From Sanguinoderma infundibulare (taxonomy: Eukaryota; Basidiomycota; Agaricomycetes; Polyporales; Polyporaceae): a DNA stretch of 64,000 nucleotides. The stretch's first letter is position 1. Each line of letters begins with the position of its first letter. Positions 45,680-62,085 of the stretch are shown here, one piece after another. The stretch lies in NCBI GenBank assembly GCA_032821775.1, contig JAVLRN010000010.1:806001-870000 (forward strand), read 5' to 3'. A program made the translations under genes and the position numbers. A model generated the notes under the pieces. That model was not told the origin of the DNA and searched no databases. It saw only the letters and a program-made list of their open reading frames with translations.

Positions 45680-46095
45680 CTAGTAGCCCTCAGCAGCATG
45701 CTGGCAAATCAGCACCTCTGCTGCAGCAGATTTTGGTCAAACGTTGCAACGGAGATCTTCAGGGTATCTGAGGACCACGACTTCGTAAGCCGATTCCCAA
45801 CAGTTGAACGACTTCATTTGACTAGACTCACGAGTTCAGCCCATCCGTTGGCCTGTACTGGATCCGGATTGGTTTTCCGTCGTCTCCGAGAGGCGGAGTT
45901 ATGTCAAAGACATGCAGGACCGATGCGACATTGATGAAGAGCCCGGCTTCGGCGAAGTGGCGTCCGGGACAGGCCCTGTATATGACTATAAGCGTCATTC
46001 GCATCATATCTGATCGCTCTAGCTCAATGACATACCTTCGACCGTAGCCGAATATGGACGCTGTGGGATCGCGGACGGTGGGATCTAACTTGCCA
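45680..46095 (-). pseudogene. 5'-truncated cytochrome P450 relic
   Basis: The minus strand retains the C-terminal part of a P450. Exons read KLDPTVRDPTASIFGYGRR joined to ACPGRHFAEAGLFINVASV, which together give the haem-ligand motif FxxGRRxCPGR with its cysteine. Then come LHVFDITPPLGDDGKP and, after another intron, YPEDLRCNV, a stop, and PKSAAAEVL, the usual P450 ending with a nonsense codon inside it. Everything upstream of the haem region is missing at about 46095, where the sequence switches abruptly to a fragment of the partner gene in the opposite orientation. It is a non-functional remnant. Fungal P450s of this kind oxidise secondary metabolites or xenobiotics. Confidence 0.8.
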
Positions 46096-46415
46096 TTATG
46101 ATGCAGTGGGAATATGGGCAGATAATACCGGGCTCGGAGTACCCGTCACCTGGGGGTGGCACACCAACATTCCTGGAGCGGTCGACATCTTGAAGACGTG
46201 GGTCGTCCTTACAGACACCTTTTACGAGGAGAGCGGGATCAACGTTCAGTTGAGAGAGGTGTGGCGCCATGAGCTTCCCGTCATCACCTTCATCTCGAAC
46301 AGGCAGATGTGGACATCACTCTTGATCAGCATCAATCCATAGCCTAGGACCTATTGGAGGATATAGGCTACAAGAAGGCGGATGGCCTCTGTGGTACCTC
46401 GGCAAGAGGGAGCAG
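46096..46415 (+). pseudogene. 5'-truncated copy of the partner gene (module 1 flank)
   Basis: It corresponds to the second half of exon 2 of the partner genes at 55478 and 60817: NTGLGVPVTWGWHTNIPG, AVDILKTWVVLTDTFYEESG, INVQLREVWRHELPVITFIS, then NRQMW. A one-base loss after NRQM shifts the frame, giving an early stop (SLLISINP). Homology continues to GGCAAGAGGGAGCAG|GTGCG, the conserved last splice donor. Its first exon and half of the second are absent, replaced by the P450 relic. The same frameshift occurs in the copy near 57230. Confidence 0.85.
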
Positions 46416-47710
46416 GTGCGAATCATGCTATCTGCCAGCCGGACTGTCGTTCACGTCGTTTCAGTATTGATTTTGTAGATTCTGTGTCTTTCGTAATGGC
46501 GCTCGCGCCAGTTTCCAAGCACAGTCAGCCTCTGTTCACGCTGGCCTGCGAGACGTAGATGCCCGTAATATACACTGACCTATCCAACTCATTCTTCCCG
46601 AATCCTAGTATCGTTTACTCCCTCGCTCGTCCTTTCCCTTTGCCCTTAGGAACATCATCATCACTCGATTCTTCTCCGTCCTGCTGAACGAACATCAGCC
46701 AAACGAACCACGCAAAGACCCAACCGAACTCTCATGTGACTCACCTGTCCAACGTCGGGCTTCGGGGGTGGCGGGACTGCTACGCGTGGATTATAGGGGA
46801 TGACTAGTACTTCGTTCGTCGCATTGCGACTGAGCGGACCAGTCTTTGGCTTCGGAAACCGGATCCAGTCAGGCTTCAATCTTTGGCTAGTCGAAGGCCC
46901 GGCGTTGCCCTGCCAGTGCGTGCCCTGTAAATACGTGTTCTGTTAGCAAGACATGCGGGCTGCGTTACAGTTGTAGATGGGGGATACTACCTGGATCGAA
47001 CTTGAAGGGGCGGCGTGATAACTAGAACCGGCGCTGGAGCCCCATGCGGGAAGCAGGCCTTCGGAGGCGTTCTCGCGCGGTTGATGTCTTACCGGGACCG
47101 TTCCGGCGACGGAGTGTGCGCGGCGTCGATGGGGTCGTGTTGGGGACGGAATGTCGGACGCGACTGCGTAGGGGTCGCGGCCCTGACGCGGTGTGTAGTT
47201 CGCAGCATGGGAGCTTGCGGCCGGTTGTCCCCTACTAGTGCCGCGGTCGTCGGGAGCTCGAGCGTCGTGCGCGTGAGGGACAGCGCCGCCGCCGCCACCA
47301 CTCAGGCTACCACCACTAGGACGGCGGGGAAGAACGGCATTGCTGCGGCTCGGCGGACGATCGTTGAGTTTACTGCCAGAAGGTTCCGCGCGGCGAGCGC
47401 TCGAGCTGTGAGTGATGGTGTCACGTCGCGTTAGAGCTGCACTGCTCGGGACGTCAGTCTTGAGGTTTACTTGGAAAGCACCTGCGGCGCTGGCGCGATA
47501 GGATGCGGGGAGTTGGGGAACGGCAAAGCCATCACGGTCCATTCGCGCCCCGAGCAGAGTGGGGCTGCTCGGGATGGGGATGTCACTGTAGTTCAAGTTT
47601 GCGGAGCTCGGGGGAGGGCGCGCTCGGCGACCGGCGGCGGCGTGTCTGCCTGGTTGATGAGACGGTCCAGGGAGGACCGACGAGCTGGCTGAAGCCCGTG
47701 GGGTCATGAA
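46096..47710. repeat. Near-identical duplicated block, copy 1
   Basis: By eye almost identical to 57025-58640, including introns and non-coding DNA: the broken partner fragment, the spacer and the last three exons of the nuclease gene. Identity falls clearly outside this block, near the segment coding for ADLPEEFDFLSEELVE. Confidence 0.75.
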
Positions 47711-47829
47711 GTCGCTTGGCTGGAATCCTTTGGACCGCTTCAGGCTCATGCGTGCCGTGAACGCAACCGCCAGCTCCTCCACTAGCTCTTCAGACAGGAA
47801 GTCGAACTCTTCCGGCAAATCGGCATTTG
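46615..47829 (-). pseudogene. PD-(D/E)XK nuclease-like gene of module 1, 3' part (split by retrotransposon)
   Basis: The 3' part of the gene whose 5' part lies at 53476-54983. It resumes inside an exon at ADLPEEFDFLSEELVEELAV, runs through the low-complexity region (PGPSHQPGRHAAAGRRARPP; SGGSLSGGGGGAVPHAHDAR), then a 60-residue exon (RLKPDWIRFPKPKTGPLSRN onward) and a last exon ending KGKGKGRARE-stop at 46615. The reading frame and splice sites match the intact copy at 57538-60216. No other disabling mutation was seen; only the LTR-element insertion breaks the gene. Confidence 0.82.
47825..47829. repeat. 5 bp target-site duplication of the retrotransposon
   Basis: ATTTG immediately left of the 5' LTR is repeated at 53476-53480 immediately right of the 3' LTR. 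This shows a single, unrearranged integration into an exon of the nuclease gene. Confidence 0.9.
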
Positions 47830-48046
47830 TGTAAGGTATACGGTTCCCTATTACCTTACTCGGACTCCTTCTCGGCTTACGTATACATAGTATATAGCCT
47901 CTCTCACCTGATATCGTGCTCTCTAGTCTCTTACCGCACGATATCAGGTACGTAGCATACACTCACATGTAGTCTAGTCTCTTACCGCACGATATCAGAT
48001 CTCGTTCCTGTTCTGTTTCGAGTGTTGGAGATACAGTCTCCTTCCA
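47830..48046 (+). repeat. 5' LTR
   Basis: 217 bp, starting TGTAAGG and ending TTCCA. It contains two internal repeats of CTCTTACCGCACGATATCAG. By eye it is identical to the 3' LTR. Confidence 0.95.
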
Positions 48047-48512
48047 CTTTTTTTTTTGAACATCGAACAGGTCTGCGTCGCTGTTCCCAACGGCGACATC
48101 CAGCCTGACTGCACCCGAACCAACGTCTTACTGGGATAGCCATTCGCGGCTGCTGCAGATCCCCGGGAATCGCATTACCCGTCGGCGCTACGCTGTCATC
48201 ACCGCAATACCCGACGACGAACACACCGAGCCCTCGGCACCGTCGCCGGCGGATAGTGAGTCCTCATCACTCTCCTTCATCAGTTCCGCCCCCTCAGTCG
48301 TGTCCATCCCGGACTCGACGCCTCCACCCCCGGAACCCGCACACACCGTACCCGAACCTGTAGAACCTCGTCATACCCCCGAACCGGACGAATTACGCGC
48401 ATACACCCACGTCCCTGAGCAGTCAGAGAGTCTTGACAGCTCTCTATCGTCTATCACCTCATCCCCTGATCAGCTGCGCATCATTTCACCCGCATATACC
48501 CACGCACGCGCC

Positions 48513-51500
48513 ATGCCCACACCAGACGCCACCATCACCACGCGCCAGAAGGCCTCTCCCGTCATCAGTAACGGCAATATCACCCCGGCGATTATCAACG
48601 CTTGGGAATCCGCCTGCCTCAATTACTTCCAAGATCGCGCGATCGACGATGACAAGCAGACATTCAAGGCTTCCATGGGATTCGAAAACACAGTCCTCCG
48701 TGCCTGGTACGACGTGGAGCGCGTCTGTTTCCAGGGGATGCCTTTCGGTCAGTTCGCTGCCGAAATGTGCAGGCGCTTCCTCCCCTCGAACTGGGCAGAA
48801 GATCTCAAGACCAAGATCCTCGTGACCAAACAGTGAGACAACCAGTCCTTCCTCGACTTCGTGCTGCAAATCGACACTCTCAATGCTGAGCTCCTCGCTT
48901 CTCAGGACTTCCTTGACGACGACGGCGTGCGCCTCGTCTTACGCTCCAACTGCGTTGCTGACCTCAAGCCTTTGATCGATGTCGAACACATCAGGAGCGA
49001 GTGCGATTTCGTCGCTTGGAAGACCGCTGTCGCCGCGCAGGACGAGGTACGCATTCGTGCCAACAATGCTATGGATAATAGGATCCGCACTATCCTTGCT
49101 TCCGGCAATGCCAATACGCGTTTCCGGAACAACCCTCCCTCATACACGTACCCTGCCGCTCTCCCCGCTATCACTCCGGATGAACGCTACATACTCGAAC
49201 GCAACCAAGGCTGTTTCAAGTGTCGTCGGCTCAACGTCTTTGACAAAACCTCGCACAACAACCGCCGCTGCCCCAATGGCGTGCCGAAAGCATCAGAGTA
49301 TGTTCCCCTCACTACGCAATACCCACACCTCGCTCCTGGAAAAGAGAATGCGCGTCCCGGTCCCTCCGCTCCTCGTCCTTGTGCCTCTGCGGCTGCAGTC
49401 ACTTCTGGTACCAGCACTGAGGCGAACGATGACAAGCTGGTCGTCCCTGTCGCCGCGTTGACCATCAATGCTGCCACGAACTCTTCTGGATCCCCACCGG
49501 CCTACATCTCCGGCGTCCTGGGCAATGGTTCCGAGTCCGACTCGTACGTCGCTCCCCTCTTCGCTGATCATACCATCCTCCGAGCTCACACTTTGCCTTA
49601 TCCTGACTCCCCCGTATACGACATGCTAATCGACGGTGGCGCGGGCCCAGTTCTGATTAGGTGTGACGTAGCGGATGCCATGGGTGTCCGCATCCGCAAG
49701 CTGCCCACAAAGCATATTCTGGGGAATGCGTGGGGAAACAAAGGTGCTGGCTGCGTGGAGAGTGACGAGTTTGTGAAGCTACCTGTATCATTAGTCGACC
49801 TGTCCTGGACATCACGGGTCTCACAGGCACTGGTCGTCGACGACTTGTGCGCTCCTGTAATCCTAGGGAAAACCTGGCTCGAATCCAATCATATTGTTGA
49901 AGATCACTCTGCTGGTACCCTGATCGACAAGCACACCGGTCGCAACTTGCTGGGGCCTCCCCCTGGCCCCTCCATCCCCATTCCTCCCCCTCGCGTCCGC
50001 CGCCTGGCCGTGCTCGAGGCTCGCACCGCTGCGCACGTAGAGAGATGTGCCAGTAGGTGCTGCTTCCTGCGCGAGCTTGGTGAGCGCATGGCGGAACACC
50101 GTATACGTGCGGATGCTTCTGCCGTGGATGGGATTGCATACGCAGCTAATGCCGTCCGCATGAGAGTAGAGTTCTTGGCGACCATGGAGGCCCTCGAACT
50201 CAAAAACGTCGCGATGAAGGCCAAGTTCGCCGACCGCTTCCCATCTGACATTCCCCACATCTCACAGATGCCCACAGATGTCTACCACCGCTTTGTCCTC
50301 AAAGATGCGAACATGATCATCTCGCGGCGGCAGTACGATTGTCCAAAAAAGTATCGTGAGGTGTGGAAGGTCCTATTGGACGAACATCTGGCGGCAGGAC
50401 ACATCCGTCCTTCCAACAGTCCGTACGCCTCCCCTGCTTTCCTTGTACCCAAAACAGATCCTACAGCAAAGCCACGTTGGGTCAACGACTATAGGGTACT
50501 CAATGCTAACACCATCCCCGACATGCATCCTTTGCCGAAAATCAGCGATATTCTGGCAGACTGTGGTAAAGGGAAGATTTGGGGCAAGCTTGACATGACA
50601 AACTCGTTCTTTCAGACTCTTGTTCACCCCGACGACATCAAATATACCGCTGTTACTACTCCATTCGGCCTCTACGAATGGACGGTCATGCCTCAAGGCT
50701 GTCGTAACGCCCCCTCGACACACCAACGGCGGATGAACGCTGCCCTGCGCCCTTTCATTGGAAAATTCTGTCACGTTTATCTGGACGACATCATCATCTG
50801 GTCGCAGTCGATTGAAGAACACTGCCGGCATGTCGAGCTCATATTGGAAGCCCTGTGCACTGCTCATCTGTACGTTTCGGACAAGAAGACTTCCCTCTTC
50901 CTCCTCGAGGTCGACTTCCTTGGACACCACATCTCCCAACGTGGTATTGAACCGGATGGAAAGAAGGTCGACAAGATACTCAGCTGGCCTACCCCGAAAT
51001 CAGCATCTGCAGTGCGCTCTTTTCTCGGACTAGTACGATATATCGCCGCATTCCTTCCGAATCTTGCTGAACATACTCGTATCCTGAATGCGCTGATGAT
51101 GAAAGACGCAGACACCGCTTGGCCTGGATGGACAGACGTCCATCAGGTCGCATTCGACGCTATCAAAAAGCTCGTCTGCAGCCGCGACTGTCTCACTGTC
51201 GTCGACCACGATGCCCTGGATGTCAACTCCATCTTCATCTCTTGTGATGCTAGTGACTTTCGAACTGGCACAATGCTCTCCTTCGGTCCTTCCCTTGATA
51301 CTGCACGTCCTGTGGCTTTTGATTCCGCTCCCCTTACCGGCGCACAACTCAATTACCCTGTCCATGAAAAAGAACTCCTCGCCATTGTTCGCGCTCTCGA
51401 AAAATGGCGTGTCGACCTGCTGAGTGTCCCTTTCACTGTGTACATGGATCACAGGACTCTCGAGAACTTCTCCTGACAGAAGACTCTCTCCAGGAGGCAA

Positions 51501-53234
51501 GCACGCTGGCAAGAGTTTCTCGCCCAGTACGATTTCAACATCCAGTACGTTCCGGGAGAACAAAACATCGCAGCGGATGCTCTCTCCCGTACCCCATGTG
51601 ACGAGAACACCATCATTCCTGCTTGTGCCGTCTCGCTCTTCCGTGCTGCCTCATGCACTCTTCGGGAACGTCCTGACCCTCTTCCTTCACATGTCGCTAC
51701 TGTCGCTGGATCTCTCCGGGTTGCCACTGATCCTGCCTGGTTAGCCTCGATTCGGGATGGATATCTGAAGGACAAGTGGTGCCAAGCATTACGGGAAAAC
51801 GTCGGTTCAGCCGGGATTATCGACCGTGATGGACTCCTCTTCGTTGGCAATCGTCTAGCGATTCCCCGCATCCATCATCTTCGGGAAGGGCTTTTCCGAT
51901 GCATGCACGATGCCATAGGACACTTCGCATTCGACAAATCGTACGCTTACCTTCGGGATGCCTATTACTGGCCCCAAATGCGGAAGGAGCTGGCGAAGAT
52001 GTACATTCCCTCGTGCGAGAGCTGTCAACGCAACAAGAGCCTTACGACGAAACCTGCCGGACCCATGCATCCTTTACCTGTGCCTGACGGCCGAGGACGC
52101 TGCATTACCATCGACTTCATCGGACGCCTCCCGGACGACGATGACTTCGATTGCATCGCGACCATCACTGACCGCCTCGGCGCTGACATTCGCCTTATCC
52201 CTACGCGCACAGACATCACTGCAGACCAGTTCGCGGCGCAGTTTTTCGATCACTGGTACTGCGAAAACAGCCTATCCACCGAGATCATTTCCGATCGTGA
52301 CAAACTCTTCGTATCAGCATTCTGGAAGGCATTACACCGTCTGACGGGGGTTAAGATCAAGATGTCCACCGCGTTTCACCCTCAGACCAACGGTGCATCA
52401 GAAAGGACGAACAAGACAGTGATCCAAGCTCTCAGGTACCACGTCAACCGGAATCAACGCGGATGGGCGAAGGCACTGCCTCACATTCATTTTGCAATCA
52501 TGTCTGCCATTAACGACTCGACCGGATTCTCTCGTTTCCAGCTGCACCTTGGGCGACAGCCTCGTGTCCTTCCCCCCATATACAATGATGACATCGTAAA
52601 CGCATCCCTATCCGCTCCTGCTGAGGCCAAACTGGCCGCCGAGCTAATCAAGCAGATCGATACTGACGTCTGGGAAGCGCAAGACACTCTGGCTGCGGCG
52701 AAACTGGCACAGGTGACGGCCGCTAATCGTGGGCATTCGCAAGATCCTTCCTACAACGTCAGCGACTTCGTGTTGCTCTCCACCCTGCATCGCCGACAGG
52801 CGTACATGCAGCGCAGAGATAACCGAGTTGCCAAATTCATTGTATGATATGACGGCCCATACAAAATTTTACGTGCGTTCCCAGATTCTTCCGTTTATAC
52901 TCTCGAGCTTCCCACGTCCATGAACATTTTTCCCACCTTTCATGCCTCGCTTTTAAAACCATACCACAAAAACGATGATCGCTTATATCCCTCTCGATCA
53001 TACAACCCACCTGCTCCCATACTTACAGAGAATGGCATTGAAGAGCAGGAAATCGAGAGCATTCTCGACCACCAGCGCCGAGGCCGTGGTTATCGCTTCC
53101 TCGTGCATTGGAAAGGTTTTCCGGACTCTCATGACTCTTGGCTCCCTGGCTCTATCTGCCGTGACTTAGCTGCGCTTGATACATACTTGTTACATAACCC
53201 TGAACTCGTTCCTGATTTTCCTACAGAGTCGTAA
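48513..53234 (+). pseudogene. Gag-Pol polyprotein frame of the retrotransposon, interrupted by three TGA codons
   Basis: One frame, open upstream to about 48059 but with its first in-frame ATG at 48513. Gag carries a knuckle CFKCRRLNVFDKTSHNNRRC. The protease active site reads LIDGGAG instead of the usual D-S/T-G. Reverse transcriptase has the YLDDIIIW catalytic box, RNase H has FISCDASD. Integrase has an HHCC finger (HDAIGHF and CESCQRNK) and the DDE residues in TIDFIGRL, SDRDKLF and HPQTNGASERTNK. The chromodomain is IESILDHQRRGRGYRFLVHWKG. In-frame TGA codons lie at 48834, 51474 and 52845. All three positions are one C-to-T change from CGA (arginine), and no frameshifts were seen. Confidence 0.88.
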
Positions 53235-53244
53235 TCATTTCTTT

Positions 53245-53258
53245 AGAAGGAGGAGGAG
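53245..53258 (+). other. Polypurine tract of the retrotransposon
   Basis: AGAAGGAGGAGGAG directly precedes the 3' LTR, the position expected for plus-strand priming. Confidence 0.8.
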
Positions 53259-53475
53259 TGTAAGGTATACGGTTCCCTATTACCTTACTCGGACTCCTTC
53301 TCGGCTTACGTATACATAGTATATAGCCTCTCTCACCTGATATCGTGCTCTCTAGTCTCTTACCGCACGATATCAGGTACGTAGCATACACTCACATGTA
53401 GTCTAGTCTCTTACCGCACGATATCAGATCTCGTTCCTGTTCTGTTTCGAGTGTTGGAGATACAGTCTCCTTCCA
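53259..53475 (+). repeat. 3' LTR
   Basis: 217 bp copy of the 5' LTR with no difference found by eye. It is followed by the ATTTG target duplication. Confidence 0.95.
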
Positions 53476-54983
53476 ATTTGGGGACATCAAGAAAGAGATA
53501 TCCTGTCATGAGCAAGTCAGTTCAAGCGGTGGAAGGTTATAATGTGTCGAGGAATGACTGCTTACGCTCTTGTTGTTCACCGCTATCGCTTTGGAACCGT
53601 CGACTTGCAGCAGGAAGTCGGCTCCGTCGGAGGGGTCATTGCCCGTCTGTAACACGAAGGCATGAGGTGACAGAAGCGGCAGAGAAACCAAAAATTCACA
53701 GAAGAAGACGTACTGCCGGCTCTCCCCCATCTGGTAACTTGTAATCAGCCGCGAAGCCGTCGTCGTTGGGACGTCCAGCATCCGCCCAGCGATATCCGAG
53801 CTTCATTTCCTCGTCGGTGAGGCTGAACCAGAGCTGTTGGAAATCCGCAGTGGTTATGATGGGCGATTTTGAGTCAACCAATGAAGCGAGGTAGGACTTG
53901 AACCAGGGATTCAGTGCCATCCTTGGTGCGCCAAGTCGCATTATGTGGTATACCACTACACGGTGTCTCGGCTTGAGGGGATCGGCCTTGAACCCGTGTG
54001 ACGACTGAGGCGAGGGTTTGCGTGGCACTGTGTCATCGTATTCGTCGTCCGAGTCGGGTGGAGGGCCGCTCTCTGGTTGTGGGTCACCCTTTGCAGTCAA
54101 CCAGTCGGGAGGCACAAGGTGTTCAACAGTCTCGGGATCATGTGCATCTGGCAAAACGATTATCAGCCTTGAAGTATGCACACACTGTGTAAAGGCATGC
54201 CTTTGGGCTTCTTGTTGGGCTTGTTTCTAGCCAAGCGTCGGAGGCGTTTCATTCCCTGATCATGAGATGGAGGGTTGCTTGCTGTGCTTTGAGGGGCATT
54301 GTCGACCGATGGCCCGCCAGGAAGAGCAGTCCCAGGAAGGAGCTCGCTACGAGAGAAACAGAGTGCAGCCCACCACACAGCGCACGCTAGGAAGGCGTCG
54401 ATTGTCGTTTGGTCTGCATGTTGTAGGAAAGCTAGTCTTGCCTGAGTCCTGACCTGCTTCATCACGTTGGTAAGCAAGGTGAATGCTTTGTCCCTGCCTT
54501 TGCATGTGTTCCACTCGACTTTCGGCAAAGCCTTGATTTCGACGACAAGAAAGATCTTGCGGAGCTTGCTCTTGAGGGCGGAGATGGTGAGGACGAAGTC
54601 AGGCAAACAATACTCCATCACTTTCTGCTTCGGTCCGTCCATGCGGTACAGAAATGGATGCTGGGCTCCACATGTAATGCTCATACCTGGACGGGTGAAT
54701 GTGAGACCCCAAGTCGAGAAGAGGTATCCCCAGGGTTTATACAGATGAGCCTCCCAGGAGCTACACTCTTCGGCAGCCTTGAACATTTCATCGAGCTCTT
54801 CGTGGAACCTTTCGTCGGTAACAGAGAGGGAGAGTAGGGCATGCTATGCGATTCTGTGAGCAAATTAATAATACATACTACGAGGGCAACGGAACAAACC
54901 TCTGGCTGGTCTTGCGCCTGGTTCGCCATCGGAAGCGCAACGGTGGTTGACAGCGTTTGGTGGTTGGCGTCCGGTGGTTCCAT
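53476..54983 (-). pseudogene. PD-(D/E)XK nuclease-like gene of module 1, 5' part (split by retrotransposon)
   Basis: Starts at the ATG at 54983 (MEPPDANHQTLSTT). After an intron ending GCATAG come HALLSLSVTDERFHEELDEM and SSWEAHLYKPWGYLFSTWG. The nuclease core follows: EYCLPDFVLTIS (PD motif), FLVVEIKALP (ExK motif) and VMKQVRTQARLAFLQ (following Gln helix). A basic patch MKRLRRLARNKPNKKPKG comes next. After a GC-AG intron, the second domain includes VYHIMRLGAPRMALNPWFKS and FQQLWFSLTDEEMKLGYRW. The last exons contain DGADFLLQVDGSKAIAVNNKS and DISFLMSPN, where the retrotransposon breaks the coding sequence. The catalytic residues are intact. Confidence 0.83.
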
Positions 54984-55477
54984 GGCTGTGAGATTCGGGA
55001 AGGCACCTCGTCGGCTCCCCCAGTAAAAATGATAAGGGTAAGATGCAAGAAACGGAAAGGGATGGGAGGCAAGCAGTGGAAGGGGACGAAGATTGCAGTG
55101 GCAGAGCGAAATCGATGGTCAAGCTCAAGGCGCGACTTGGAGGCATTTCAACTTCATACGGCGGTTCTCGTTTAGGGATATTGACTCGGAACACCCAAAT
55201 AAGCAGGATGCGTGGATGTCCGTCGGTCGCATCAGGACTTGAAGCCGTACGAGGTCCATCCACGAATGGTCCCTTTGTTCGCTCGATTTGGGCGATGCGG
55301 TCATGTGATGGTGAGAATGTTGGTTGGTAGTGGTATATTGTGGGCAGGCGCTTATATGGATTGCATACCACCGACGACGAACGACGAGCTCAAGGGCGAC
55401 GGCATCCACTTACACTTCGTCCATCTCCCATATCCATCTCACCCAACTTGTCCCAGCACACCAATTGCTCATCAGCT
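54984..55477. promoter_or_regulatory. Shared divergent promoter of module 1
   Basis: 494 bp between the nuclease-gene ATG and the partner-gene ATG. It shares short conserved elements with the module 2 promoter: GACTCGGAACACCCAAAT at 55183-55200, a TTGTTCGCTCGATTTG element near 55278, and GGCGCTTATAT near 55348, a likely TATA element for the partner gene. Conservation of such islands between otherwise diverged spacers suggests coordinated control; this is inference. Confidence 0.6.
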
Positions 55478-56220
55478 ATGGCCGCAGTCGATGAAGCCCC
55501 CGGTCCCTCCACTTTCCCCTTCGCTGATTTCCGCGACGCGTCGGCAGACAACCACTCGGAGGTGTCTGACAGCGAACTCGAATCATCGTCTCGTTCTCCC
55601 AGCCCCGAGCCTGAGAAGCCAGCGGAGGCAGATATTAAACGACCGCCCTTCCCGTTTGTCTATGGGGTATGTCCTTCCACGCTTTCCAGCGCACCATCTG
55701 GAGTTCTAATGCTCTCGCGCCAGAAATTTCGCGTCCGCAATATGCTTCCTCGTCCCGTCCTTCCGCGCCGCCTTGATCCCCGCTTCGTTGCAATCCAGTC
55801 CCCTCTCGATATCCCACTCTGCTGGCTCGGTGTACCTTTCACATTTGAAGCAATAGCTGATTACGCGGAGAACACTGGGCTCGGCGTGCCCGTCACCGAG
55901 GGCTATCACAGCCGCATACCTGGGGCGGTAGACCTCATGAAGACTTGGCTCGTCATCACGGACAACTTCTACGACGAGAGCGGGATCAACATCGAGTTGA
56001 GAGAAGTTTGGGGCCACGATCTTCCCATCATCACCTTCATCTCGAATAGGCAGACGTGCGATATCACATTGGAGCAGCATCAGGCCATTGCGGAGCTCTT
56101 GGAGGACATGGGTTACAAGAAGGCGGATGGACCAATGTGGTACCTAGATAAGAGGGAAGAGGTGCGTTTCCTTCTATCCTGCTACTCCAACTCCATCGCT
56201 GACGTCGTTTCTAGTACTGA
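55478..56220 (+). CDS. Partner protein of the nuclease module 1, function unknown
   Basis: Three exons (55478-55666, 55724-56161, 56215-56220) give 210 residues. The last exon encodes only Tyr and the stop, a structure shared with the second copy. The N-terminal 60 residues are acidic and serine-rich (SEVSDSELESSSRSPSPEPE). The conserved part starts KRPPFPFVYG and continues MLPRPVLPRRLDPRFVAIQS, PLDIPLCWLG, NTGLGVPVTEGYHSRIPG, DESGINIELREVWGHDLPII and GPMWYLDKREE. I recognise no known family and no catalytic motif. The gene lies head-to-head with the nuclease gene. It is intact although its nuclease neighbour is disrupted, as would be compatible with a protective or regulatory partner (inference). 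Confidence 0.8.
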
Positions 56221-56684
56221 GTCCCTGTTCTATGTCTGCTTATGTTCGCTTTGTGATTTTGTATTCGCTCTCCCCTTCTTATGCTGCCCTACTTGTCGGT
56301 CGTATTGCATTGTGTATCATAGGCATAATTGAGTGTTTAAGCACTGCAGAAGAGTCGTAGGACATGCTTCATACCCTGCATTCGTAGTCTACTTCAATGC
56401 GGATGGTCATGTCTGACTTCTACCCGATCGCCCGTGTACCTCCGTATCTAATATGACCAACCGCGTCCCAAGCCATGCACATTCACAGGTGCGCTTCCTC
56501 TCACTGCTCGAGATTGATGCATTGATAGGCTGCACGCAGTGAACATGTCTTCATTACCAACCCGTGGTTGAGCTGAAATTATAGAGCGCCCATCAGGCTT
56601 CCGTTGAACCACCACCTACCACCACGCACCACCCCCTCGACGACTCGACGACGAAAACTCCGTTCCCCTGTATCTGACACGGAC
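56221..56684. other. Spacer between modules 1 and 2
   Basis: 464 bp including the 3' UTR of the partner gene and the 5' flank of the broken partner copy. No other feature was seen. Confidence 0.5.
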
Positions 56685-57337
56685 ATGTCTTCCGATCCCG
56701 TTATTGAACCTCCAGTGTTCGACGACTACCACTCCGACTCGGGGTATGACAGCGAGTCTGAGCGGTCTTCATCCCGTGCTGCAAGCCCCGAGCCCGAGAA
56801 GCTGGCTGACGCTCAAGTCAAGCGACCGCCGTTCCCGTTTGTCTATGGGGTATGCCTTCTACGTTTCCTGCGTCACCCGGGATTCTAATGTTTGCGTACC
56901 AGAAACGTCGCGTCCGCAAAATGCTACCCCGTACCGTGCTGCCGCCCCTCCTGGATCCCCGATGCGTTGCCATCCAGTCGCCTCTTGATATTCCCCTCTG
57001 CTGGCTGGGCATACCTCTTTGCTATGATGCAGTGGGGAGATGAGCAGACAATACCGGGCTCGGAGTACCCGTCACCTGGGGGTGGCACGCCAACATTCCT
57101 GGAGTGGTCGACATCTTCAAGACGTGGGTCGTCCTTACGGACACCTTTTACGAGGAGAGCGGGATCAGCGTTCAGTTGAGGGAGGTGTGGCGCCATGAGC
57201 TTCCCGTCATCACCTTCATCTCGAACAGGCAGATGTGGACATCACTCTCGATCAGCATCAATCCATAGAGGACCTATTGGAGGATATGGGCTACTAGAAG
57301 GCGGATGGGCCTCTGGTACCTCGACAAGAGGGAGCAG
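56685..57337 (+). pseudogene. Broken partner gene copy between modules
   Basis: Starts MSSDPVIEPPVFDDYHSDSG with a first exon that differs from the other copies at its N-terminus but matches from SPEPEKLADAQVKRPPFPF onward. Exon 2 reads MLPRTVLPPLLDPRCVAIQS and CWLGIPLCYDAVGR, then a TGA where the intact copy has a tryptophan codon. After NRQM it has the same one-base loss as the fragment at 46096-46415. Further small deletions lie near GGCGGATGGGCCTCTGG. It is not functional. Intron and splice sites are retained, so the copy decayed in place rather than arising as a processed copy. Confidence 0.85.
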
Positions 57338-58640
57338 GTGCGAATCATGCTATCTGCCAGCCGGACTGTCGTTCACGTCGTTTCAGTATTGATTTTGTAG
57401 ATTCTGTGTCTTTCGTAATGGCGCTCGCGCCAGTCTCCGAGCACAGTCAGCCTCTGGTTCACGCCGGCCTGCGAGATATAGATGCCCGTAATATACACTG
57501 ACCTATCCGACTCATTCTTCCCGAATCCTAGTATCGTTTACTCCCTCGCTCGTCCTTTCCCTTTGCCCTTAGGAACATCATCATCACTCGATTCTTCTCC
57601 GTCCTGCTGAACGAACATCAGCCAAACGAACCACGCAAAGACCCAACCGAGCTCTCATGTGACTCACCTGTCCAACGTCGGGCTTCGGGGGTGGCGGGAC
57701 TGCTACGCGTGGATTATAGGGGATGACTAGTACTTCGTCCGTCGCATTGCGACTGAGCGGACCAGTCTTTGGCTTCAGACGCCGGATCCACTCGGGCTTC
57801 AATCTTTGGCTAGTCGAAGGCCCGGCGTTGCTCTGCCAGTGCGTGCCCTGTAAATACGTGTTCTGTTAGCAAGACATGCGGGCTGCGTTACAGTTGTAGA
57901 TGGGGGACACTACCTGGATCGAACTTGAAGGGGCGGCGTGATAACTAGAACCGGCGCTGGAGCCCCATGCGGGAAGCAGGCCTTCGGAGGCGCTCTCGCA
58001 CGGTTGATGTCTTACCGGGACCGTTCCGGCGACGGAGTGCGCCCGACGTCGTTGGGGCCGTGTTGGGGACGGAATGTCGGACGCGACTGCGTAGGGGTCG
58101 CGGCCCTGACGCGGCGTGTAGTTCGCAGCATGGGAGCTTGCGGCCGGTTGTCCCCTGCTAGTGCCGCGGTCGTCGGGAGCTCGAGCGTCGTGCGCGTGAG
58201 GGACAGCGCCGCCGCCGCCACCACTCAGGCTACCACCACTAGGACGGCGGGGAAGAGCGGCGTTGCCGCGGCTCGGCGGACGATCGTTGAGTTTGCTGCC
58301 AGAAGGTTCTGCGCGGCGAGCACTCGAGCTGTGAGTGATGGTGTCACGACGCGTCAGAGCTGCACTGCTCGGGACGTCGGTCTGGAGGTTTACTTGGAAA
58401 GCGTCTCCAGCGTTGGTGCGATAGGATGCGGGGAGTTGGGGAACGGCAAAGCCGTCACGGTCCAATCGCGCCCCGTGCAGAGTGGGGCTGCTCGGGATAG
58501 GGATGTCGCTGTAGTTCAAGTCTGCAGCGCTCGGGGGAGGACGCGCTTGGCGACCGGCGGCGGCGTGTCTGCCCGGTTGATGAGATGGCCCAGGGAGGAC
58601 CGACGAGCTGGCTGAAGCCCGTGGGGTCATGAAGTCGCTG
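57025..58640. repeat. Near-identical duplicated block, copy 2
   Basis: Counterpart of 46096-47710. It spans the broken partner gene's second half, the spacer and the last exons of the nuclease gene. Confidence 0.75.
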
Positions 58641-60216
58641 GGCTCGAACCCTTTGGACTGCTTCAGGTGCATGCGCGCAGTGAATGCCGTCGCCAGCGCC
58701 TCCACAAGCTCTTCAGACAGGAAGTCGAACTCTTCCGGTAAATCCGCGGTAGGGGACATCAAGGAAGAGATATCCTGTCATGAGAAAGTCAGTTCAAGCA
58801 GTGCACGCTCGTGATCCGTCAAGGAAGGGCTACTCACACTCTTGCTGTTAACCGCTATCGCTTTGGAGCCGTCGAGCTGCAACAGGAAGTCGACACCGTC
58901 AGAGAGGTCCTTGCTTGCTGTCTGTGAAACGAAGACATGATGAGATGGAGAGGAAAATAGGGACTTATGAGCGAAAAAGACGTACCGTAGGTGGCTCATC
59001 CCCATCCGGCAACTTGTAACCTGGAGCAAAGCCTTCATCATTGGGACGTCCAGCATTCTCCCAGCGGTATCCGAACTGCTTTTCCTCATCGGAAAGGCTG
59101 AACCAAACCTTTTGGAAGTCGTCGGTGGCTATGCCCGGCCAACCTCCAATCAACCAAACGAGGTAAGACTTGAACCAAGGATTCAAAGCCTTCCCCGCGC
59201 CGCCAAGCCGCATGATATGATAAACTTCTGGATGATTTTCTGGCTGGAAGGGTCCGCGTTGGGCTCCTTTCCGAAGCTCATCTTGATTATTGGCATCCGT
59301 ATCTGAGTCTTCCGAGTCAGAGGGAGGATCATCCTGCCCGTCATGGTCCACAGACCAGTGACCGGGAGCCTTTTGTTGATCAGTTTTCGAGGCGGGGGCA
59401 TCTAAAAAACGATCATCAGTAATATGCATTATGCACAGGCTAAAACGACGTGCCCTTGAGCTTCTTGTTAGGCCTGTTCCTTTTGGAGCGTCGGAGGCGT
59501 TTTGTCCCCTGATCGCGAGACGGGGGGTCGCTTGCTGTGGACTGAGGTCCGTTGTGGCCCGGGATAACAGCTGTAGGCAAGAGCTCGCTACGAGAGTAAC
59601 GGACTGCGAGCCACCACACAGCGCATGCGAGAAAGGCGTTGATTGTCATTTGATCTTTGTGCTGTAGGAAAGCTAGCCTTGCCTGAGTTTCGGCTTGCTT
59701 CAGCGCGGCAGTGAGTATGGCTAGGGCTTTGGCCTTCCCATTGCGTGTGTTCCAGTCGACGTTGGGCAGCGACTTGATTTCGACGACAAGAAAGACCGGG
59801 CTGAGTTTGCCGTCGAGCACAGAGATAGTGACAACGAAGTCGGGCAAGCAGTACTCGAGAACCTTCTGCTTAGGCCCAGCCATGCGATGCAGGAATGGAT
59901 GCTGCGCTCCGCACGTCATGCTCATATCCGGACGAGAAAAAGTAAGACCCAAAGTTGAGAAGACGTAACCCCAAGGTTTATACAAGTGAGCTTCCCACGA
60001 GGAATTCAATCGGGCCTCCTCGAACATATCGTCGAGCTCTTGATAGAATCTTGCTGCGGTGAGGAATAGACCGGGCTGGGGGTTTTATAATGTGAGCCTG
60101 AATAATCTATCAGAGGGACATGTGGGACAAACCGGTGGTTGATCTTGGGGCCGGTTGGCCGTCGGCAGAGCACCGGTGGTTGACGGCGGTTGCTTGTTCG
60201 CGTTTGGTGATTTCAT
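57538..60216 (-). CDS. PD-(D/E)XK nuclease-like multi-domain protein (module 2, intact)
   Basis: Seven exons (60216-60133, 60075-59454, 59401-58986, 58921-58838, 58774-57914, 57847-57668, 57606-57538) join exactly to 771 residues. Residues 30-200 carry a PD-(D/E)XK signature: Glu56 in SSWEAHLYKPWG, Pro106-Asp107 in EYCLPDFVVTIS, Glu127-x-Lys129 in VFLVVEIKSLP, and a helix with Gln155 and Gln159 in ALKQAETQARLAF. A basic patch TKRLRRSKRNRPNKKLKG may be a nuclear signal. Residues 240-375 hold a second domain (LNPWFKSYLVWLIGG, DDFQKVWFSLSDEEKQFGYR), faintly HMG-box-like. From 403 the protein is mostly low-complexity Ser/Pro/Gly, ending KGKGKGRARE. Intron 2 has a GC donor, also in module 1. The family is not recognised; nuclease activity is inferred from the motif. 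It is divergent with the partner gene at 60817. Confidence 0.82.
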
Positions 60217-60816
60217 CGCTGTAGGGCGGGATGGTGTAGTGATTGGGAAAAAAGCTAGGAGGTGGGTAGGGATTAAGGAAGAGAGATCTGACGTGGTGAA
60301 GTTCAAGCCGATGGTTGGGCCCGGGATATGAAGTTTTAAATATGATGTCCAGCGCGAGTCACCGGGGCTTTAACGGTTTTCATTTCGGGACACTGACTCA
60401 GAACACCCGAATCGGACGTGGGGTCCAGGCGTGCGAGGTCGGAGTGGTTCAAGCGTCTGGGTGGAATCTATTGTGCTGACGGGCTGGAGCCAGCTGGCCG
60501 GCCAGTCCCTCCCTCTGAAGCAGCGGTGGGACGGAGCCTGCGTGGGGTCCTTCCATAGTCGGCAGGAGGAGCGGTAGAAGTTGTGGTACGAGGGGTGCAT
60601 TGTCTTTGTCTGCCAGCCCTTTTGTTCGCTCAATCTGAGGAGGCCGTCATGTGGGTGTGGGAATGTTGACATTGCATTGGCGCCTGTGCGACCTGGCGCT
60701 TATAAGTTATAGCCAACGTTCAACCACCAACGACCACCTGCACCTCTTCCCGCACCTGCACCTCTTCCCTCACCTGCACCTTACCCCAAGTCAACGCGCT
60801 TTTTCTCTTTCTCGCC
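60217..60816. promoter_or_regulatory. Shared divergent promoter of module 2
   Basis: 600 bp head-to-head spacer. It carries GACTCAGAACACCCGAAT at 60395-60412 (one island shared with module 1), a TTGTTCGCTCAATCTG element near 60626, and GGCGCTTATAAG near 60696 as a probable TATA element for the partner gene. A CACCTGCACCTCTTCC direct repeat precedes the partner ATG at about 60735-60785. Confidence 0.6.
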
Positions 60817-61587
60817 ATGTCTGTAGACTCCTCATCATCGTCAGCCATGGCCATCGTCTGTGAGGCGCCCTGTCCCTCCACCTCTCCCTTCACCGATTTC
60901 CGCGACACGTTGGCAGACAACCACTCGGAGGAGTCTGACGGTGATCCCGAGTCTTTGTCCCGTTCATCCAGCCCCGAGCCCGAGAAGCTGGCTGACGCTC
61001 AAGTCAAGCGACCGCCGTTCCCGTTTGTCTATGGGGTATGCCTTCTACGTTTTCTGCGTCACCCGGGATTCTAATGTTGCGTACTAGAAACGTCGCGTCC
61101 GCAAAATGCTACCCCGTACCGTGCTGCCGCGCTGGCTGGATCCTCGATGCGTTGCCATCCAGTCGCCTCTTGATATCCCCCTCTGCTGGCTGGGCATACC
61201 TCTTTGCTATGATGCAGTGGGGCGATGGGCACACAATACCGGGCTCGGAGTACCCGTTACCTGGGGGTGGCACACCAACACTCCCGGAGCGGTCGACATC
61301 TTGAAGACGTGGGTCGTCCTTACGGACACCTTGTACGAGGAGAGCGGGATCGACATTAAGTTGAGGGAGGTGTGGGGGGAGGAGCTTCCCATCATCACCT
61401 TCGTCTCGAACAGACAGATGTGCGACATCACTGCCGATCAACGTGAAGCGATAGACGAACTATTGGAGGATATGGGCTTCGATAAGGAAGCTGAGGGACC
61501 TATGTGGTACCTGGATAAGAGGGAGCAGGTATGCCTCATTCCATCTTGCCAGTCGCACTCGCTCACTGACGCCGTTTCTAGTACTAA
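60817..61587 (+). CDS. Partner protein of the nuclease module 2, function unknown
   Basis: Three exons (60817-61035, 61088-61528, 61582-61587) give 221 residues, again with a final exon of just Tyr and stop. The N-terminal 65 residues are acidic and Ser-rich (SEESDGDPESLSRSSSPEPE). The conserved domain runs from KRPPFPFVYG through MLPRTVLPRWLDPRCVAIQS, NTGLGVPVTWGWHTNTPG, AVDILKTWVVLTDTLYEESG and IDIKLREVWGEELPIITFVS to GPMWYLDKREQ. About two thirds of positions match module 1's partner by eye. No known domain is recognised. Both the head-to-head placement and the repeated co-duplication with the nuclease gene point to a joint function, which is inference. Confidence 0.82.
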
Positions 61588-61779
61588 TTTTCTGTTTTAT
61601 GTCTGTCCTATGTTCGCTTTGGCATCCTGGATTCACTGTTCTCGTCTTATGCTGTCTATACTCGTCAGTCGTATTGCATTGTGTATCAAGTAATGAAGTA
61701 TTTAGGGCCTGTAGAATATCAATAGGATATGTTCCACCTGCATTCGTAGTCTACTTCATCGCGAAAGGCCATGTGTCGA
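61588..61779. other. 3' flank of the partner gene
   Basis: Short non-coding stretch resembling the flank after the module 1 partner gene (GCATTGTGTATCA, then a CACTGCAGAA/CCTGTAGAA-like segment). No gene is present. Confidence 0.5.
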
Positions 61780-62085
61780 GCAAGGGAGATCCTGACTCGG
61801 GCAAGTCAACTCAAGCGGTAGAGGCTTGTTCCAATCTGCAAGGAAAGGCTGCGTACGCTCTGGCTACTGCCATGGCTTTGAAACCGCTCAGTTGCAGCAC
61901 GCAGTGGACACAGTCGGTGAGGTCATCTCAGGTCATCTCCCGTCTGTAACACGACTTAAGGCATGAGGAGCCCACAGGTGAGGAGGAACCAACCTCGCCA
62001 CATCTGTTGACGAAGAGAGGTGGGACTTGAACTAGAGATGCAGTACCACCCCAAGGCACTTTATATGATACATTTGGGAATAGCG
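61780..62085 (-). pseudogene. Relic of a third nuclease-gene copy
   Basis: Degenerate but alignable to the middle exons of the nuclease genes. It keeps AAGTCAACTCAAGCGGTAGA, TTTGAAACCGCTCAGTTGCAGC, CGTCTGTAACACGACTTAAGG and GAGAGGTGGGACTTGAACTAG, matching 53510-53940 in order and orientation but with deletions and no open frame. It marks the former right-hand continuation of the array. Confidence 0.65.

What the first reader, a model, noticed from the sequence alone, without database searches (positions are those of the whole stretch)
45680..62085. Tandem array of a two-gene module: PD-(D/E)XK nuclease-like gene head-to-head with an unknown partner gene
Two complete modules plus two broken partner copies and one nuclease relic lie within 16 kb. 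Each module has a minus-strand nuclease-like gene (PD, ExK and Gln-helix motifs retained in both copies) and a plus-strand partner gene starting 0.5-0.6 kb away. Repeated co-duplication of two unrelated genes in the same divergent arrangement, with decayed copies around them, is what one expects of a selfish or conflict system: a nuclease effector and its cognate inhibitor, or a genome-defence pair. In Podospora, Spok spore killers contain a PD-(D/E)XK nuclease region, which is precedent for such enzymes in fungal drive, but the proteins here have no visible kinase domain and the partner matches no family I know. The toxin-antidote reading is inference.
Basis: partly seen in the sequence, partly recalled or inferred. 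Interest (0 to 1): 0.9.

Follow-up and report, generated by a model that had tools for sequence, protein, structure and literature searches.

The report
Head-to-head nuclease and antidote-like gene family
In the genome of a Ganoderma-like fungus, a gene predicted to encode a DNA- or RNA-cutting enzyme was found at 13 places (two of them broken), each time head-to-head with a small acidic partner gene of no known family, and that partner was found without an enzyme gene of its own at 11 further places; the two likely work as a toxin and its antidote, which would be a new kind of genetic conflict system in mushrooms.

Summary
The tandem array is real, with one correction. N2-P2 is an intact module (776 aa nuclease-like N2; 221 aa partner P2). 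P1 is intact, but N1 is interrupted in exon 5 by a 5.6 kb Ty3/gypsy element with identical LTRs. Two broken P copies and an N relic flank the modules. The array is one site of a genome-wide family. Eleven further N loci (one a fragment) on seven other contigs all have a P homologue head-to-head. N and P co-diverge across 12 pairs (Mantel r 0.965). PD, E-x-K and Gln residues are kept in 12 of 12 complete domains; the low-confidence model has a restriction-endonuclease-like order of elements. No N was found without P; 11 of 22 outside P loci have no N of their own, ten with an open domain. P folds confidently, with no reliable match to a known family or structure. This fits a nuclease toxin with its antidote better than a housekeeping pair, but nothing here shows toxicity, neutralisation or drive. 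Named relatives of P were found only in Ganoderma; no description turned up in the paper listings seen. Toxin-antidote is inference, about 45% likely.

The parts
57538..60216 (-). N2, intact nuclease-like gene, 776 aa; exons 60133-60216, 59454-60075, 58986-59401, 58838-58921, 57914-58774, 57668-57862, 57538-57606
   Evidence: Gene model by comparison with N1; introns GT-AG or GC-AG, one open frame. RNA not tested.
59454..60075 (-). PD-(D/E)XK-like domain exon of N2 (CLPDF ... EIK ... QAETQAR)
   Evidence: Motif residues invariant in 11 of 11 aligned rows and present in 12 of 12 complete domains; order of elements in the model.
58986..59401 (-). second conserved N domain (exon 3), no known family
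   Evidence: Profile match beside each of the 10 complete N domains outside the window; no Pfam match.
46615..54983 (-). N1, nuclease-like gene interrupted by a retroelement in exon 5
   Evidence: Exon pieces located, 5' exons translated, insert mapped.
47830..53475 (+). Ty3/gypsy LTR retroelement with chromodomain inside N1; LTRs 47830-48046 and 53259-53475; target duplication ATTTG at 47825-47829 and 53476-53480
   Evidence: Identical 217 bp LTRs and 5 bp duplication; Pfam RVT_1, RNase H, Integrase_H2C2, Chromo; reading frame split by in-frame stops.
55478..56220 (+). P1, partner gene, 210 aa; exons 55478-55666, 55724-56161, 56215-56220
   Evidence: Open spliced frame; named homologues in Ganoderma.
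60817..61587 (+). P2, partner gene, 221 aa (211 aa if the ATG at 60847 is used); exons 60817-61035, 61088-61528, 61582-61587
   Evidence: Open spliced frame; 71% identical to P1 over the domain exon.
54984..55477 (.). N1-P1 divergent intergenic region, 494 bp
   Evidence: blocks at 55162-55200 and 55271-55322 are 82% and 79% identical to blocks between N2 and P2.
60217..60816 (.). N2-P2 divergent intergenic region, 600 bp
46097..46500 (+). broken P copy at the 3' end of N1
   Evidence: 95% identical to 57023-57422, 78% to P1; partial match.
56577..57350 (+). broken P copy at the 3' end of N2; exon-2 part 56888-57337 holds a TGA and a TAG; outer limits approximate
61776..62051 (-). N relic (two pieces similar to the exon 3-5 part of N1)
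   Evidence: 70% over 198 columns and 82.5% over 40.

Best explanation
This array is one site of a genome-wide family of two-gene modules in which a gene predicted to encode a PD-(D/E)XK nuclease (N) lies head-to-head with a small acidic partner gene (P), and the pair likely acts as a toxin (N) and its antidote (P). Shown by sequence: linkage, orientation, co-divergence, decay, and P genes without an N of their own. Predicted: a restriction-endonuclease-like fold for N, with motif residues kept. Inferred: N, which carries a basic stretch after the domain that looks by eye like a nuclear signal, cuts DNA or RNA in nuclei or spores that lack P; P, made from the shared promoter region, binds N and blocks it. 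Cells that lose the module lose the shorter-lived protection and suffer, so modules persist and multiply by segmental and tandem duplication. When N decays, P can stay behind as protection against sister modules.
For: Linkage: 11 of 11 N loci found outside the array have P head-to-head, 471-1154 bp between matched domain exons, plus N1-P1 and N2-P2. Asymmetry: two N queries found no N locus without P; of 22 full-domain P loci outside the window, 11 have no N of their own: for ten, none in about 5 kb or more on the N side; the eleventh (C13:247 kb, with a stop inside) lies behind the P of a complete pair. Those ten have an open domain exon. P without N is scattered on the tree: 7 changes, at least 4 forced by well-supported branches. 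Co-inheritance: N and P identities across 12 complete pairs correlate, Mantel r 0.965, reached by 0 of 9999 permutations. Constraint: dN/dS 0.19 (P1/P2) and 0.23 (N1/N2); below 1 in all ten N and all ten P comparisons of pairs that were run, and in ten further ones that involve P genes without N. Nuclease residues kept in 12 of 12 complete domains. P is acidic: domain pI 4.3-5.8 in 23 of 23 computed; P1 and P2 pI 4.6; N1 and N2 domains pI 9.4 and 9.8. Precedents for nuclease toxins: a lysine mutation in the SPOK3 nuclease domain abolishes killing (PMC6660238, passages); SPOK1 kills by targeting DNA (PMC9972908, abstract).
Confidence: 0.45

Rival explanations
1. A genome-defence or self/non-self pair: N is a nuclease effector directed or licensed by P against mobile elements, viruses or foreign nuclei, expanded like an immune gene family.
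Against: No recognition domain was found; KH match far below the reliable range; P acidic; a recent retroelement sits inside N1 itself; no PADLOC match among 11 N domains; solitary P genes are not predicted.
Confidence: 0.2
2. An ordinary host gene pair sharing a two-way promoter, multiplied by segmental duplication with no conflict function; N a repair or processing nuclease and P its subunit.
For: Purifying selection on both genes; duplicated blocks carry neighbours such as a GH10 xylanase fragment; head-to-head genes are common in compact fungal genomes (recalled).
Against: Fast divergence (about 25-33% identity between N2 and the N of other loci), frequent decay, tandem arrays with relics, and P genes kept without N are unusual for a housekeeping complex; named relatives of P found only in Ganoderma at this sensitivity.
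Confidence: 0.22
3. Remnant of a DNA transposon: N derived from a mobile-element nuclease, P an accessory protein, now domesticated or decaying.
For: Dispersed N copies on seven contigs besides the window's; tandem and inverted copies; PD-(D/E)XK enzymes occur in transposition systems (recalled).
Against: No inverted repeat of 60 bp or more in window 40000-64000; copies share flanking host sequence instead of sharp ends; no Pfam transposase match in the N pieces scanned. Short terminal repeats were not ruled out.
Confidence: 0.1

Closest known systems
Spok spore killers of Podospora (Ascomycota)
   Same: [quoted passage not shown] multi-copy fungal family that evolves by duplication and moves between places (PMC6660238, abstract and 12 passages).
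   Different: Spok is one protein with killing and kinase-based resistance domains. Here no kinase domain is found and the candidate antidote is a separate, divergently transcribed gene.
Wolbachia CinA-CinB / CidA-CidB incompatibility factors
Fungal two-locus drivers of Neurospora (rfk-1/rsk, Sk-2 and Sk-3)
   Same: Killing and resistance are recalled to be encoded by separate genes, and resistance can exist without killing (recalled).
   Different: Described as large multi-gene drive elements (PMC6185902, search listing); no nuclease-partner module of this kind known to me there.
wtf drivers of fission yeast
   Same: Large gene family, 25 members in one genome (PMC5478263, search listing); antidote-only copies (recalled).
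   Different: Single-gene drivers expressing both toxin and antidote (PMC10721834, search listing); no nuclease (recalled).

Membership tests
PD-(D/E)XK nuclease superfamily (N) | PD ... (D/E)-x-K active-site residues and Gln in the following helix | tested here: met
   P81 D82, E102, K104, Q130, Q134 invariant in 11 of 11 rows (N1, N2 and nine outside loci); PD, E-[IM]-K and Q-xxx-Q present in 12 of 12 complete domains. The C1 fragment lacks the region. That these motifs define the family is recalled.
PD-(D/E)XK nuclease superfamily (N) | alpha-beta-beta-beta-alpha-beta core | tested here: inconclusive
   [not shown]
PD-(D/E)XK nuclease superfamily (N) | metal-dependent cleavage of DNA or RNA | not testable with these tools
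   Needs purified protein.
Spok spore killers | kinase-like resistance domain in the same protein | tested here: not met
   No Pfam match at E <= 0.1 in six N open-frame pieces of N1 and N2, and no kinase among weak matches of 11 N domains.
Spok spore killers | spore killing in crosses | not testable with these tools
   Needs crosses.
Two-gene toxin-antidote (toxin-antitoxin) systems | toxin and antidote genes linked, and the toxin not kept without the antidote | tested here: met
   13 of 13 N places found (11 outside, of which one is a fragment; N1, interrupted; N2) have P head-to-head; no N without P in two single-protein searches of this genome. Other genomes not tested.
Two-gene toxin-antidote (toxin-antitoxin) systems | antidote can persist without the toxin | tested here: met
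   11 P loci without an N of their own in the stretches read, ten with open domain exon; dN/dS below 1 in ten comparisons that involve them. That P is the antidote is inferred.
Two-gene toxin-antidote (toxin-antitoxin) systems | product of one gene harms, product of the other neutralises | not testable with these tools
   Needs expression tests.
DNA transposon | terminal inverted repeats and target duplications around the unit | tested here: inconclusive
   No inverted repeat of 60 bp or more in window 40000-64000; duplicated blocks run into flanks; short repeats not excluded.
KH domain (P) | beta-alpha-alpha-beta-beta-alpha fold with GXXG loop | tested here: inconclusive
   [not shown]

The most novel reading that the evidence does not exclude
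A new, Ganoderma-lineage nuclease-antidote conflict system: divergent two-gene modules in which a PD-(D/E)XK killer and a dedicated inhibitor of new fold co-diversify into separate specificities, multiply through subtelomeric and tandem duplication, and leave behind solitary antidotes, giving mushrooms a spore- or nucleus-killing drive family of a dozen modules per genome.
Probability: 0.35. Interest if true: 0.9.

Novelty: new variant of a known kind. Interest (0 to 1): 0.72.

Why it matters
Fungal killers known in detail, as far as I recall, come from ascomycetes and most are single genes. A recurrent nuclease-partner module in a wood-decay mushroom would give a directly testable candidate for drive or nuclear conflict in Agaricomycetes, where nuclei of two parents live together for long periods. 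It would also give a possible nuclease inhibitor of unassigned fold and a natural series of 12 pairs for testing specificity. The asymmetry (no N found without P; 11 P without an N of their own) turns a guess into a prediction that one yeast experiment can refute.

Tried and rejected

Rows dropped before counts: alignment A1 left out L022 (C11) and L027 (C1 fragment); A2 left out L035, L041, L057 and L060, whose matched stretch held a stop, and the fragment L039. For identities, dN/dS and trees C14a, C15b and N of C11 were put back with stop-free limits; C13:247 kb and the two broken P copies stayed out; the tree used six of eight outside P proteins (not P0004, P0008).
Full report
Where it lies. 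The window is positions 806001-870000 of contig C10 in an unnamed 48.9 Mb assembly of 87 contigs. The named proteins closest to P1 are from Ganoderma leucocontextum, G. sinense and G. boninense at 62-67% identity, so I call the host Ganoderma-like. Two of them, G. sinense GSI_09193 and GSI_09196, both list a contig of 3,321,861 bases. Locus tags three apart suggest a similar array there; this is an inference, and the genes between were not seen.

Anatomy of the array. Reading left to right: a broken P (+), N1 (-), P1 (+), a broken P (+), N2 (-), P2 (+), an N relic (-). N2 has seven exons and encodes 776 aa: the nuclease-like domain in exon 2, a second conserved domain in exon 3, then a long low-complexity tail. 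P1 and P2 have three exons, the last holding one codon and the stop, and encode 210 and 221 aa. Splice sites are inferred by comparing copies; no RNA was available.

Correction. N1 is split in exon 5 by a Ty3/gypsy element with a chromodomain at 47830-53475, with identical 217 bp LTRs and the target duplication ATTTG, so the insertion is probably recent. The frame runs 27 codons into the LTR and stops, so a shortened N1 with both conserved domains could still be made; this is untested. Next to the insert, N1 and N2 are 94.8% identical over 1729 columns on the 3' side, and 70.7% over 1528 columns on the 5' side. The break lies at the insertion point, as if gene conversion stopped at the insert.

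A genome-wide family. Searching the same genome with N2 and with a diverged N found N at 11 places outside the window, on contigs C1, C2, C3, C7, C11, C13 and C15: ten complete domains and one fragment at C1. Searching with P1 and a diverged P found 22 full-domain P loci outside the window, two partial ones at C7:1.03 Mb that were not examined further (neither N query matched there), and several short C-terminal relics. All 11 N places have a P head-to-head with 471-1154 bp between matched domain exons. With N1-P1 and N2-P2 this is 13 of 13.

Asymmetry. Eleven of the 22 outside P loci have no N of their own. For ten, profile search found no N in about 5 kb or more on the N side, and the domain exon is uninterrupted. 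The eleventh, at C13:247 kb, carries a stop and lies about 1.5 kb behind the P of the complete pair at C13:243-245 kb. On the P tree the with-N and without-N labels need 7 changes, at least 4 forced by well-supported branches, and are no more clustered than shuffled labels (193 of 500 shuffles as low). So loss of N, or copying of P alone, seems to have happened repeatedly. At C1 the shared block ends between the N fragment and P, which points to the copying route in one case.

Co-divergence and constraint. Across 12 complete pairs, P and N identities correlate (Mantel r 0.965; 0 of 9999 permutations as high). Linked genes are expected to do this; it shows no reshuffling of partners between the diverged groups. 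dN/dS is 0.19 for P1/P2 and 0.23 for N1/N2. For the other nine pairs compared it is about 0.3-0.5 for P and up to 0.76 for N. That is constraint, weaker in some recent N copies. I found no positive-selection signal and did not run site models.

How it spreads. Copies share flanks. Ten loci, six with N and four without an N of their own, carry DNA 79-100% identical to a stretch just 3' of P that overlaps a GH10 xylanase-like fragment at C13:329 kb (only that copy was tested by Pfam). This suggests spread by segmental duplication rather than precise transposition. Seven P loci of one clade lie 65-124 kb from the telomere-bearing end of contig C3.

Mechanism. The best fit is a nuclease toxin with a separate antidote. 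The steps shown are linkage, orientation, co-divergence, decay and P genes without N. The nuclease activity is predicted. Toxicity, inhibition and any drive or incompatibility role are inferred. Spok provides the closest fungal precedent: its nuclease domain is needed to kill and a kinase domain in the same protein to protect (PMC6660238, abstract and passages), and SPOK1 acts on DNA (PMC9972908, abstract and outline). The module here is not a Spok: no kinase domain was found and it has a separate partner. Rival readings as a defence pair or an ordinary subunit pair stay open.

Noticed in passing
window 47830-53475: Ty3/gypsy element with chromodomain and identical 217 bp LTRs inside N1; its main frame is split by in-frame stops.
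   Followed up: partly
window 46097-47824 against 57023-58747: Identity between N1 and N2 jumps from about 71% to about 95% at the retroelement insertion point, suggesting gene conversion bounded by the insert.
   Followed up: partly
L063:2969-3313 (C13:329.3-329.6 kb) and nine similar places: GH10 xylanase-like fragment 3' of P, with similar DNA at ten P loci; 97% identical between C13:248 kb and C13:329 kb although the neighbouring P genes are about 71% identical, so the module is more diverged than its flank there.
   Followed up: partly
G000:C13:335654, C13:356119, C15:596293, C13:233960: Short C-terminal P relics in the same orientation as the nearest paired P, the first three on the 3' side of N as in the window.
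   Followed up: no
G000:C3:65-124 kb: Seven P loci of one clade within 60 kb, near a telomere-bearing contig end; two pairs of solitary P genes are transcribed away from each other across 14-16 kb.
   Followed up: partly
G000:C14:290321-294099 and 347058-350820: Two solitary P loci in inverted copies 92% identical over 3.8 kb.
   Followed up: no
G000:C7:1027737-1028006 and 1033493-1033723: Two partial P matches 5.5 kb apart, not examined further.
   Followed up: no
P model against BFVD: Weak fold similarity of P to an uncharacterised Pithovirus LCPAC304 protein (probability 0.97, E 0.024, TM 0.44).
   Followed up: no
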